IMG/VR virus record: IMGVR_UViG_3300037189_016931
Span: 1 to 24,740 of that record
Length of the DNA stretch: 24,740 bases
Direction: 5' to 3' (one strand)
Source: a virus
The first letter of the stretch is position 1, and each line of letters begins with the position of its first letter. The notes under the pieces were generated by a model that saw only the letters and a program-made list of their open reading frames with translations, ran no database searches and was not told the origin of the DNA. Below, piece after piece: positions 7,863 through 22,422 of the stretch. Position numbers and translations under genes: made by a program.

Positions 7863-9206
7863 TTACCTCGCACTTGTTCTTAGTGAGTTGAAATAGAGCC
7901 AATCAACGGCAATAGAGCGTGATGTTGTTCCGGCAGATTTTTCAATTTTCGCTCCGTAAAAAAAGAAATCGCCCGCGCCTGGAAGGCCAGAGCTCACAGT
8001 ATTTGTAAGTGTTCCGTCGATATAAAACTGAGCTTGTGTTCCCGCCTGATTAACAATGATCACAAAAACTTGATTGACTGTGTTTGACGGAGCAATGCCA
8101 GTATCAACAGCGGCGCGCACCCCAGCGTCAGCAACGACCGCTTCCCAACGTCCGCCGTTCACCGAGTGTGTGTAGCGAAAATAAATGCCGTCTGTCATAT
8201 CCCCGGAATTTGGGTTGTCCAAAAAACCAATGTAAGCTGTATATGTGTTAGTTCCATCTGACAGACCAGACGTGAGCGCAGAACGAAAACCACAACGGAG
8301 TTGATTCGTTCCGGCCATGATTGTTCCAGAATTATAAATCATTGCTCTGGCGGTGGTCCCTGAGCCCAAAACCATTTCAAAAACGCCGAGACAATTTTCA
8401 GTGCTGTTTACTCCTGTCACCGAGTCGTTAGAGTTTACTTGACCAGTTCCGCCCCCAGCGTTTGCCGCGATGTTAAGAGTAGCCCTGTCGTTTTGACAAA
8501 AGTCAGTCCAAAAGGCAGCTTGTCGATCTAGATTTAGCGCCCAATCATAAATCATCTCTTTTTCATTTAAAGCAGTTTGCAGATCTGTTTGATCTGAAAG
8601 CGTGCCTGTAATTCCGCCCCATGCGGTGCTGGGGCTTTGCCAACTCAAAATTCCCGAACCGTCGGTCTGAAGAAATTGTCCTGTTGACCCGTCCGCATTT
8701 GGCAACACATAATCCGTCGTTCCGCCCAAAGCAGGATCAACACTAAATCCTACGTAGTCTGCCTCGTCATCATTCCACAACTTTAAAGCGTTTCCGGATG
8801 AGTCAGAGAATAAATTTATATTTCCATAAAAATTAAAATCACCGCCGGGGGTGCTGCTGGAAAACGCAATTTGACTAGTGTTACCCTGTATTGATGTCGT
8901 CCTTAGACTTTGAAAATACCCAGTGAGCCATCTTTTTGCGCTTGCGCCTAAGTCGATTGAGCCATTTGTTGCAGGAATAATCGAGGCATTGACTGCCGTG
9001 GAAGCGAGGTTATCAAGCGCAGTTGTTGCCCCAACGCTCCCGGCCTGTAAAACATAAACAGCGCCGTCCCATAAATATAAATCCGAAGCGTCCTCATCAA
9101 TATAAACAATTCCAATCTCTCCCGTTACGGGGAAGGCGGCATACGTGGCGTAGGGCTCAACCCTTTGCTCTCCGCTTGCTGGGGGGATGTTTATATAGTG
9201 AGACAA
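7863..9206 (-). CDS. Tail fibre protein with lectin-like C-terminal domain
   Basis: I place the start at TTG 9206, one base after the preceding TAA, with GAGG six bases upstream; this gives 447 aa beginning MSHYINIPPASGEQ. A longer frame to 9278 would run deep into the preceding gene. The N-terminal part (GIVYIDEDASDLYLWDGAVYVL) is a typical fibre attachment or collar module. The middle contains ASAKRWLTGYFQSLRT and YVLPNADGSTGQFLQTDGSG, common fibre-shaft motifs. The C-terminal 200 residues (from about ALNLDRQAAFWTDFC to the end) form a beta-rich domain with RWEAVVADAG and AQFYIDGTLTNTV, like concanavalin/LamG-type sugar-binding folds. It probably contacts the host surface. Confidence 0.75.
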   Translation of the reverse strand: MSHYINIPPASGEQRVEPYATYAAFPVTGEIGIVYIDEDASDLYLWDGAVYVLQAGSVGATTALDNLASTAVNASIIPATNGSIDLGASAKRWLTGYFQSLRTTSIQGNTSQIAFSSSTPGGDFNFYGNINLFSDSSGNALKLWNDDEADYVGFSVDPALGGTTDYVLPNADGSTGQFLQTDGSGILSWQSPSTAWGGITGTLSDQTDLQTALNEKEMIYDWALNLDRQAAFWTDFCQNDRATLNIAANAGGGTGQVNSNDSVTGVNSTENCLGVFEMVLGSGTTARAMIYNSGTIMAGTNQLRCGFRSALTSGLSDGTNTYTAYIGFLDNPNSGDMTDGIYFRYTHSVNGGRWEAVVADAGVRAAVDTGIAPSNTVNQVFVIIVNQAGTQAQFYIDGTLTNTVSSGLPGAGDFFFYGAKIEKSAGTTSRSIAVDWLYFNSLRTSAR

Positions 9207-9207
9207 A

Positions 9208-9549
9208 TTAAACCTCTTCGCCTTTAAATAAAATTGAAGTTGTCGCAACGTAAGAGCCGCTCGTCCATGCGTAGGCAAGTCTGTAATATCGAAACGCTGC
9301 GTTTATTCCCGTGAGATTCACACCAAACGTTCCATTCCCGGTAACACTCACTGCTGAATCAAGAGCTTTAAAATTAGTCCCATCGAGACTCCCTTGCGCT
9401 TGAATTGTCGTTCCGACGGGCGAAGACGCCGCGCTTGCGACTGTGACAAAACAAATTGTTGCCGCCTGTGGGCACTCAAGCGTGTCTGTGGTTTTTGCGC
9501 TGTCAATCGTTAGCGCGTCTAATGTTTTTTCAATTAATGATTGTTGCAT
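9208..9549 (-). CDS. Small beta-sandwich fibre-associated protein
   Basis: A 113-aa protein with AGGAG five bases before the ATG. It is beta-rich with IQAQGSLDGTNFKALDSAVSV and FRYYRLAYAWTSGSYVATTSILFKG, the same plan as the 123-aa protein at 7301-7672. It sits between the two fibre genes, and its last codons (GGC GAA GAG GTT TAA) contain the ribosome-binding site of the next fibre gene. It likely belongs to the virion, perhaps as a fibre-base or decoration subunit. Confidence 0.65.
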   Translation of the reverse strand: MQQSLIEKTLDALTIDSAKTTDTLECPQAATICFVTVASAASSPVGTTIQAQGSLDGTNFKALDSAVSVTGNGTFGVNLTGINAAFRYYRLAYAWTSGSYVATTSILFKGEEV

Positions 9550-19961: not shown

Positions 19962-20228
19962 TTAAACTCTTGCTCCGTAAAATTTAAGCACCGCTTGCGT
20001 CCTTGAGCTCACGCTTAATTTTCTGTAAATATCTGTGAGATGAAACTTCACCGTTTTTTCGACGATAAATAATGACTCTGCGATTTCTTTGTTTGATTTT
20101 CCCTTTAAGAGAAGCCCAAATATTTCAAGCTGTCTCGGGCTTAAAACAACACCACAAGCAGCAAGTGACGTTGCCGTGCTTCGAGATAGCTCTTCAGAAA
20201 TAATTGTAGAACCCGCAGGAAGCGCCAC
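19962..20228 (-). CDS. Free-standing LuxR-type HTH regulator
   Basis: An 88-aa protein with GTG start overlapping the endolysin stop (TAGTG) and GGGAAGG upstream. Residues about 28-85 are a full LuxR/GerE HTH domain: LSPRQLEIFGLLLKGKSNKEIAESL, then VEKTVKFHLTDIYRKL and RTQAVLKFY, with the usual Glu, Gly and Lys positions. There is no receiver or ligand-binding domain; only a 27-residue N-terminal extension with STIISEELSRSTATSLAACGVV. Such single-domain proteins bind DNA as dimers. It may regulate the phage late or host genes. Assignment to the HTH family is firm, role unknown. Confidence 0.9.
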   Translation of the reverse strand: MALPAGSTIISEELSRSTATSLAACGVVLSPRQLEIFGLLLKGKSNKEIAESLFIVEKTVKFHLTDIYRKLSVSSRTQAVLKFYGARV

Positions 20229-21612: not shown

Positions 21613-21810
21613 ATGAGCGTGAAATTGAGAAAAAAAAAGACGGCACTTTATCCAAAGATATTTTCCATGCGAGTTAGCGAAGAAGCTAAAGCCATGGTGC
21701 AAGAAATGACTGATTTTGAGTTTGATATAGCTGGCCCAGTCCGGGAAGTCGTTGAGCCCACGGTTAAAGAGCTATATAAGCAATTCCTAAAAGAGCGCAA
21801 ATCAAGCTAG
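21613..21810 (+). CDS. Ribbon-helix-helix-type regulator candidate
   Basis: A 65-aa basic protein, the only convincing plus-strand gene. I choose the ATG at 21613 with GGGGGA five bases before it over an upstream TTG at 21529 that has no ribosome-binding site and would start inside the operator region. The N-terminus is basic (MSVKLRKKKTALYPK), then IFSMRVSEEAKAMVQEM reads as the beta strand and first helix of a ribbon-helix-helix (Arc/CopG-type) fold. The C-terminal half is helical (VREVVEPTVKELYKQFLKE). Small size, divergent position and operator candidate suggest an autoregulating repressor. Family assignment is by pattern only. Confidence 0.7.
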   Translation: MSVKLRKKKTALYPKIFSMRVSEEAKAMVQEMTDFEFDIAGPVREVVEPTVKELYKQFLKERKSS

Positions 21811-21827: not shown

Positions 21828-21932
21828 TTAAGCACACAAAACCATTAGCGTGAGCCAAAATAACATTCCGTAAATTTGTTCTCTTAATGTCAATTTTGTG
21901 TAGCCTAAACTATCAAGCCATTTACCGTACAT
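21828..21932 (-). CDS. 34-aa small membrane protein candidate
   Basis: ATG at 21932 is preceded by AAAGGAGAG, a near-perfect ribosome-binding site, and the frame reads MYGKWLDSLGYTKLTLREQI followed by YGMLFWLTLMVLCA and TAA. The last 15 residues are hydrophobic and could cross the membrane. The ribosome-binding site begins four bases after the closing stem of the structured element upstream, so translation could be controlled by it. Function unknown; a tiny holin, host-membrane effector or leader peptide are options. Confidence 0.6.
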   Translation of the reverse strand: MYGKWLDSLGYTKLTLREQIYGMLFWLTLMVLCA

Positions 21933-21949
21933 ACTCTCTCCTTTAAAAG

Positions 21950-22088
21950 CTGAGTCAGGGCTAGGCCAAAAGGCTATGCCAGCTTTTTATCCTTTTTTAA
22001 GGGACCTATATGGGCGTCCAGCAGACTTTCTCAGGCACATTCTCAACCCATCAAAACTCGCGCTAAAAGCGCCGCTAGCCCGACTCAG
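21950..22088 (-). ncRNA. Structured RNA or leader candidate of unknown class
   Basis: On the minus strand, 22088-22075 (CTGAGTCGGGCTAG) pairs with 21964-21950 (CTAGCCC, bulged T, GACTCAG) to make a 14-bp closing stem. Inside are a 5-bp hairpin GCGCT/AGCGC (22072-22060), a 6-bp long-range pairing TGTGCC with GGCATA (22039-22034 with 21980-21975), a hairpin GGAC/GTCC (22019-22002), a GCC-TTTT-GGC hairpin (21974-21965) and a possible pseudoknot ATGGGT with GCCCAT (22051-22046 with 22015-22010). The element starts one base after the tRNA CCA and ends four bases before AAAGGAG of a small ORF. It matches no RNA class I can recall. It may be a riboswitch-like leader or a phage small RNA. Confidence 0.6.
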
Positions 22089-22089
22089 T

Positions 22090-22164
22090 TGGTAGCAATA
22101 GTTGGATTTGAACCAACACCTCTGATTAAGCCAAACCAGCGCTCTACCGTTTAGCTATATTGCT
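22090..22164 (-). tRNA. tRNA gene with apparent 8-nt anticodon loop, identity unsure
   Basis: Acceptor AGCAATA pairs fully with TATTGCT, followed by discriminator A and an encoded CCA. The D arm is GCT(A)/(G)AGC with loop containing GG, and the T arm is GTTGG-TTCAAAT-CCAAC. The anticodon stem CTGGT/ATCAG (one G-T pair) encloses TTGGCTTA, eight bases rather than seven; a 6-bp stem with a 6-base loop is the alternative. If U33 is the second T, the anticodon is GGC (Ala), but position 37 would be a pyrimidine, which is unusual. The variable loop is four bases, so it is a class I tRNA. It may be a functional phage tRNA, a frameshift-reading tRNA or a decoy. Confidence 0.82.
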
Positions 22165-22230
22165 ATCAACTCAATCGTCCATATATTGAACGGACAATTA
22201 CTTTTTCGGTAACTGTCTTGTTAGATTTTA

Positions 22231-22382
22231 CCGTGACCCTGACCATGACCGTGACCGTGACCCTGACCATGACCGTGACTGTGACCCTGACCCTGACCAT
22301 GACCATGACCCTGACCATGACCATGACCGTGACTGTGACCCTGACCCTGACCCTGACTGTGACCATGACCGTGACCGTGACC
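22231..22382. repeat. 25-unit hexanucleotide tandem array (CCNTGA)
   Basis: Twenty-five consecutive six-base units plus CC, each CCGTGA (7), CCCTGA (8), CCATGA (7) or CTGTGA (3). Only positions 2 and 3 vary, and T at position 2 occurs only with G at position 3. Units 7-11 (22267-22296) are repeated exactly as units 16-20 (22321-22350). The six-base period keeps all minus-strand frames open. No function is known; see findings. Confidence 0.97.
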
Positions 22383-22422
22383 AATATTTAATTTTTAATA
22401 ATGTTTTTCTATTTGCAGACAT

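What the first reader, a model, noticed from the sequence alone, without database searches (positions are those of the whole stretch)
21950..22088. Unassigned structured RNA directly after a tRNA and directly before a small ORF
A 139-nt minus-strand element has a 14-bp closing stem with one bulge, at least two internal hairpins, a 6-bp long-range helix and a possible pseudoknot (ATGGGT with GCCCAT). The closing stem ends four bases before the ribosome-binding site of a 34-aa ORF, the geometry of translational riboswitches, and starts one base after the tRNA CCA. I cannot match it to a known class. It could be a leader that senses a ligand or protein, a packaging-type RNA or an RNA effector. 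It is the best candidate here for something undescribed.
Basis: partly seen in the sequence, partly recalled or inferred. Interest (0 to 1): 0.78.

Follow-up and report, generated by a model that had tools for sequence, protein, structure and literature searches.

The report
tRNA-linked folded RNA in a phage
Right behind an odd tRNA gene in an uncultured phage lies a 139-base stretch that can fold on itself and whose first bases can also pair with the other side of the tRNA; it looks like a phage tRNA-plus-structured-RNA unit rather than a riboswitch, and it is known from this one virus only, so its fold cannot yet be proven by evolution.

Summary
The complementarities are real: a 14-bp closing stem (7 + bulge + 7, all Watson-Crick) starts one base after the tRNA CCA, and the stretch folds better than shuffles (z about -2.9). 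No Rfam family matches. The element occurs only in this phage and a 99.98% identical twin, unchanged, so covariation cannot be tested. The translational-riboswitch reading gains nothing: predicted accessibility of the ribosome-binding site is about the same with and without the element, and the 34-aa ORF has no match in phage records. What turned up instead: the 5' arm of the closing stem is the tRNA's 3' trailer, and that trailer also pairs with the tRNA's 5' leader, extending the acceptor helix through CCA (10 of 13 positions). Two related phages also have a tRNA-like RNA in such an extended helix (13/13, 9/13); T4's tRNAs and another relative's do not (1-4/13). One of the two also has a second closed RNA directly behind it. 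Best reading: a co-transcribed tRNA plus structured-RNA unit, comparable to T4's tRNA-Arg followed by species 2 and 1 RNAs, in which leader, trailer and distal arm compete. Strand, transcript and function are unproven; an intergenic fold with terminator hairpins remains a serious rival.

The parts
22165..22177 (-). L: 5' leader of the tRNA, complementary to the 3' trailer (acceptor-stem extension)
   Evidence: inverted repeat 22081-22100 / 22158-22177, 85% complementary; 10 WC + 1 GU of 13 positions beyond the acceptor stem
22090..22164 (-). tRNA with encoded CCA and an 8-nt anticodon loop UUGGCUUA (four-base anticodon GGCU)
   Evidence: ARAGORN, Rfam RF00005 60 bits
22081..22089 (-). T: 3' trailer of the tRNA, shared by two helices (with leader L or with distal arm D)
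22075..22088 (-). 5' arm of the 14-bp closing stem
22060..22072 (-). hairpin GCGCUUUUAGCGC; competes with a longer helix
22024..22059 (-). internal hairpin GAGUUUUGAUGGGU...GCCUGAGAAAGUC with several GU pairs; P about 0.88
21991..22002 (-). hairpin CCUUAAAAAAGG, P about 0.75
21950..21964 (-). D: 3' arm of the closing stem (one bulged U)
21945..21987 (.). alternative local hairpin AAAAGCUG...CAGCUUUU, terminator-like on both strands (better U tract on the plus strand)
   Evidence: inverted repeat I4; -15.2 kcal/mol plus, -13.6 minus; takes the place of the closing stem in some folds
21995..22004 (-). possible anti-SD segment UCCCUUAAAA, complementary to UUUUAAAGGA 21948-21939
   Evidence: inverted repeat I2, 90%; not favoured in the folds
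21828..21932 (-). 34-aa ORF with SD AAAGGAG (21938-21944) and a hydrophobic C-terminus; unproven gene
   Evidence: no match in phage records
21613..21810 (+). 65-aa ORF resembling ribbon-helix-helix proteins, converging on the element; the element could be its 3' region on the plus strand
   Evidence: no Pfam match, so the fold is inferred by eye

Best explanation
The stretch is the downstream half of a tRNA-linked stable-RNA unit of the phage. One minus-strand transcript carries leader L, the tRNA, trailer T, about 110 nt of folded RNA and the distal arm D. T is complementary to both L and D. With L, T extends the tRNA acceptor helix through the CCA, a known anti-determinant for RNase P; with D, T closes the 139-nt RNA and frees the outer part of the leader. 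I infer that the folded RNA serves as a structured 3' flank that guides or gates maturation of the odd tRNA, and that after processing it persists as a small stable RNA, much as T4 makes species 1 and 2 RNAs directly behind tRNA-Arg. Shown by sequence: the complementarities, the order, and an extended acceptor helix in three related phages. Inferred: transcription, processing, the competition in the cell, and any function.
For: T pairs with L at 10 WC + 1 GU of 13 positions, against 1-4 WC in T4's eight tRNAs and 4 in relative G016's tRNA-Asn. Relative G014, same lysis cassette, has a tRNA(UCA) near the syntenic place inside a perfect 21-bp inverted repeat (13/13). Relative G006 has a tRNA-like RNA (Rfam tRNA 41 bits) with 9/13, followed directly by a second RNA closed by TTGAAGCGGC/GCCGCTTCAA whose 5' arm again is the trailer. 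The two helices compete in predictions for both phages, with the outcome depending on the ends chosen, i.e. near-isoenergetic; the inner leader-trailer pairs through CCA stay formed in nearly all folds with leader, and without leader the window's closing stem forms with P 0.9-1.0. A stem this long directly after the CCA is rare in shuffles. [quoted passage not shown] T4 precedent: rnaD (119 nt) starts 1 nt after tRNA-Arg, rnaC (139 nt) follows.
Against: No homologue of the folded part outside the identical twin, so no covariation. G006's and the window's second RNAs share no detectable sequence. G014 has no second RNA. In G006 and G014 the tRNA lies on the same strand as the RHH-like ORF, opposite to the late genes; in the window the tRNA lies on the late-gene strand, so the arrangement is not strictly conserved. 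Most relatives, including L067 and L068 with the same lysis cassette, lack it altogether. No transcript data.
Confidence: 0.36

Rival explanations
1. Intergenic sequence that folds by composition and chance, with terminator function at most: the hairpin 21945-21987 ends the plus-strand transcript of the RHH-like gene, and the long stem is incidental.
For: Local hairpin with A tract before and UUUUUAUCCUUUUUU after it on the plus strand, placed at the 3' side of the convergent ORF. z is only -1.5 once ~10 nt of flank are added. 14-bp stems occur about once or more per relative genome. The element is absent from all relatives with the same cassette.
Against: Start exactly one base after CCA and >=12 bp is rare in shuffles, 0.05%; G006 has a similar closed RNA directly behind its tRNA-like RNA.
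Confidence: 0.3
2. A structured RNA or 3' region on the plus strand, belonging to the transcript of the RHH-like gene 21613-21810.
For: The plus strand folds at least as well against shuffles (z -3.5). In G006 and G014 the tRNA-like RNAs lie downstream of an RHH-like ORF on its strand.
Against: The tRNA of this phage is on the minus strand and the closing stem is anchored exactly at its CCA end; a terminator-like hairpin early on the plus strand would stop such a transcript before most of the element.
Confidence: 0.12
3. A cis-acting leader (translational riboswitch or protein-responsive) controlling the 34-aa ORF.
For: Good SD 5-7 nt after the closing stem; an anti-SD segment exists (I2).
Against: SD accessibility hardly changes with the element; the ORF has no match in the phage records and its product no Pfam or PHROG match; no Rfam riboswitch.
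Confidence: 0.1
4. A self-cleaving ribozyme that releases the tRNA 3' end, as HDV-like theta ribozymes do in other phages.
For: Same place: directly 3' of a phage tRNA (PMC10879173).
Against: No HDV-like P1 beginning near the tRNA 3' end in a permissive descriptor search; no Rfam ribozyme hit; the tRNA encodes CCA, whereas only 4.5% of tRNAs next to theta ribozymes do.
Confidence: 0.04

Closest known systems
Phage T4 small stable RNAs species 2 (rnaD, 119 nt) and species 1 (rnaC, 139 nt)
   Same: Structured phage RNAs directly behind a tRNA (1 nt after tRNA-Arg; species 1 follows 6 nt later), similar length, no Rfam family hit.
   Different: No convincing sequence similarity and no hit by model R1; rnaC contains a clear tRNA T-arm, the window element does not; T4's tRNAs lack the extended acceptor helix.
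Theta ribozymes (minimal HDV-like ribozymes next to phage tRNAs, PMC10879173)
   Same: Element abutting a phage tRNA 3' end; possible role in tRNA 3' maturation.
   Different: No HDV-like double-pseudoknot descriptor match at the tRNA end; about 139 nt instead of about 56 nt; tRNA encodes CCA.
Pre-tRNAs with extended acceptor stems by leader-RCCA pairing (PMC10731613)
   Same: 5' leader pairs with the discriminator/CCA and the bases beyond it.
   Different: There one to a few pairs; here about 13 positions, and the outer trailer bases have a second partner 130 nt downstream.
Phage tRNAs with altered anticodon loops proposed to escape anticodon nucleases (PMC10264068)
   Same: Phage tRNA with an unusual anticodon loop.
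   Different: Here an enlarged 8-nt loop; no host or nuclease is known, so the link is only a lead.

Membership tests
Any Rfam 15 family (riboswitches, ribozymes, sRNAs) | covariance-model score above the gathering cutoff | tested here: not met
   only tRNA RF00005 in the window; nothing credible in the element at E<=10
Translational riboswitch / leader | alternative fold that changes SD accessibility | tested here: not met
   mean SD accessibility about the same with and without the element; a prediction, not a measurement
Translational riboswitch / leader | conserved aptamer with covariation across species | tested here: inconclusive
   only one identical homologue found
HDV-like / theta ribozyme | P1 starting at the cleavage site within 5 nt of the tRNA 3' end, nested double pseudoknot with catalytic C | tested here: not met
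   0 descriptor hits at starts within 10 nt upstream to 15 nt downstream of the CCA end; 26 of 100 shuffles had at least one
T4 species 1 / species 2 RNA | sequence or structure homology to rnaC / rnaD | tested here: not met
   no convincing blastn alignment (best E 0.085 in a two-sequence comparison) and no model R1 hit at rnaC/rnaD
T4 species 1 / species 2 RNA | discrete stable RNA processed from the tRNA transcript | not testable with these tools
   needs Northern blot or RNA-seq
Phage tRNA with extended acceptor helix (group described here) | leader pairs with the trailer beyond the 7-bp acceptor stem | tested here: met
   10 WC + 1 GU of 13 (window), 13/13 (G014), 9 WC + 1 GU (G006); controls 1-4

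The most novel reading that the evidence does not exclude
A phage RNA switch in which one segment, the tRNA trailer, alternates between the tRNA leader and a distal arm, so that maturation of an unusual tRNA (8-nt anticodon loop here, UCA anticodon or an insert in relatives) is coupled to folding of a second RNA, possibly to time translation or to escape tRNA-cutting host defences.
Probability: 0.1. Interest if true: 0.75.

Novelty: new variant of a known kind. Interest (0 to 1): 0.42.

Why it matters
T4's tRNA-linked stable RNAs have, to my knowledge, no known function after decades. A second lineage of small phages with tRNA-like RNAs in hyper-extended acceptor helices, one with a closed RNA attached to the tRNA end in the same topology as here, would give a new and compact system in which to ask what such RNAs do. 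It would also show that Rfam-negative RNAs beside phage tRNAs are under-catalogued: Rfam misses T4's own two as well.

Tried and rejected
Rfam at gathering and at E<=10: nothing but the tRNA. blastn with the element or its surroundings against phages and plasmids: only chance hits, E about 1 or worse. Covariance model R1 of the element against whole records of relatives and 55 further loci: only itself and its twin; best other hit E 0.73 over 32 positions. A 21-nt loop pattern in 2.9 million viral contigs: only the twin. Terminase and capsid scans of genome contigs for a host prophage: none. ORF34 tblastn: none. HDV/theta ribozyme descriptor: none at the tRNA end. Stop-codon recoding linked to the UCA tRNA of G014: rejected, TGA is used as a normal stop and no in-frame stops were found in five conserved genes. 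Inverted repeat of relative G007 at 32016-32144: no tRNA motif, it lies between two divergent ORFs and includes their start regions. One guess dropped as non-diagnostic: that leader-trailer pairing always wins; the folds flip with the ends chosen.

Full report
Setting. The window is a 24,740-nt virus record, 99.98% identical over its whole length to IMGVR_UViG_3300032333_000308 (34,148 nt with a 123-bp direct terminal repeat, hence most likely a complete circular genome of about 34 kb). Nearly all genes run on the minus strand: small early genes, an 87-aa ORF, a hexamer repeat array, the tRNA, the reported element, a 34-aa ORF, a plus-strand RHH-like 65-aa ORF, then what looks like a lysis region (74-aa ORF, 85-aa ORF, 96-aa small ORF with a lipoprotein-like start that resembles a spanin, CHAP endolysin), terminase, portal and capsid. 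The spanin and RHH assignments are by eye; only the CHAP, LuxR-type HTH, terminase and head matches come from profile searches.

The observation. The closing stem is 7+7 Watson-Crick pairs with a bulged U. With exact borders the fold is better than 99% of shuffles (z -2.85), though other windows of the record score as well (7 of 492 sampled windows reached its z). The interior is ill-determined, with many structures within 1-2 kcal/mol, and the strand is undetermined (plus z -3.5). No Rfam family fits.

Homologues. The element exists only in the window and its twin; the four substitutions between them lie at 8849-8879, none in the element. Relatives were gathered through terminase, capsid, portal, the 74-aa ORF and the 96-aa small ORF. 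Model R1 finds the element in none of them, and a 21-nt probe finds only the twin in viral contigs.

What the relatives do show. Among the relatives examined for tRNAs, three others have a tRNA or tRNA-like RNA: G006, G014 and G016 (ARAGORN on the further loci adds none). In G014, which shares the 85-aa and 96-aa ORFs (49% and 69% identity), a tRNA with anticodon UCA sits close to the lysis genes inside a perfect 21-bp inverted repeat, so that 13 of 13 positions beyond the acceptor stem pair. In G006, a tRNA-like RNA (Rfam 41 bits) with a large insert in the anticodon region has 9 WC + 1 GU of 13 pairs, and is followed directly by a second RNA closed by a 10-bp perfect stem whose 5' arm is that trailer. 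In the window, 10 WC + 1 GU of 13. T4's eight tRNAs give 1-4 and G016's tRNA-Asn 4. By simple binomial reckoning with p = 0.25 the three values have chances of about 1e-4, 1e-3 and 1e-8 each. The extended acceptor helix is thus a real feature of the odd tRNAs in part of this phage group, and it overlaps the reported element: bases 22081-22088 belong both to the extended acceptor helix and to the closing stem.

Competition. In the full precursor the two helices exclude each other at those bases. Which wins depends on the assumed ends: leader-trailer up to 0.99 in some fragments, closing stem up to 1.0 in others. The inner leader-trailer pairs through CCA persist (P 0.8-1.0) in all window folds with leader, and without leader the closing stem forms (P 0.9-1.0). 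G006 shows the same tendency more weakly. Pairing of the proximal leader with the 3' RCCA is a known anti-determinant for RNase P (PMC10731613). The suggested mechanism - the distal arm takes the outer trailer away from the leader, or leader removal lets the second RNA close - is inference.

Riboswitch reading. SD accessibility of ORF34 is essentially independent of the element, and ORF34 has no match in 50,697 phage records. A possible anti-SD (UCCCUUAAAA) exists but is not favoured in the folds. This does not exclude regulation but removes the positive argument.

Terminator reading. The hairpin 21945-21987 has an A tract before and U tracts after it, and sits downstream of the plus-strand RHH-like gene; it probably contributes termination on that strand (-15.2 kcal/mol; inferred). 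It shares bases with the closing stem and is the main reason why I keep the ordinary intergenic explanation at 0.3.

Compared with the known. The nearest precedent is phage T4, where species 2 RNA (119 nt) begins one nucleotide after tRNA-Arg and species 1 RNA (139 nt) follows; they too have no Rfam hit. No homology to either was found. Theta ribozymes occupy the same place in gut phages (PMC10879173), but the HDV-like descriptor has no match at the tRNA end.

Verdict. A probable tRNA-linked structured RNA with an unusual three-arm arrangement; structure, strand and function unproven. New variant of a known kind, moderate interest.

Noticed in passing
window 22090-22164 (-): tRNA with an 8-nt anticodon loop UUGGCUUA; ARAGORN cannot assign it (four-base anticodon GGCU, Ala or Ser). 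Candidate frameshift-suppressor or nuclease-insensitive tRNA.
   Followed up: partly
L059 1963-2064 (G014, IMGVR 3300006805_000105): tRNA(UCA) inside a perfect 21-bp inverted repeat beside the lysis genes; a potential UGA reader in a genome that is not recoded.
   Followed up: partly
L012 6497-6781 (-) (G006): tRNA-like RNA with a large insert in place of the normal anticodon arm, followed by a second RNA containing a mini tRNA-like shape by eye (acceptor, D-like and T-like arms, no anticodon arm).
   Followed up: partly
window 22225-22384; L019 5255-5610 (MW202825.1): GGTCNN hexamer array directly downstream of the 87-aa ORF; a phage with a 49% identical homologue of that ORF also has such an array directly behind it, although its terminase is not detectably related. 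If translated it gives Ser-X repeats.
   Followed up: no
window 8849-8879 (-): All four differences between the window and its twin lie within 31 bases of the 471-aa ORF 7863-9278; possibly a hypervariable spot.
   Followed up: no
window 19965-20228 (-): 88-aa LuxR-type (GerE) HTH protein next to the endolysin gene.
   Followed up: no
window 21613-21810 (+); L067 3335-3520 (-); L059 2056-2244 (-): Small RHH-like ORF opposed to the late genes beside the lysis cassette in several relatives; no Pfam match for the window and G014 copies, L067 copy not scanned. Candidate regulator of late transcription.
   Followed up: partly
L065 1909-2172 (phage T4): T4 species 1 and 2 RNAs have no Rfam family hit at E<=1 apart from a weak tRNA-Sec match; a gap in the library.
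   Followed up: no
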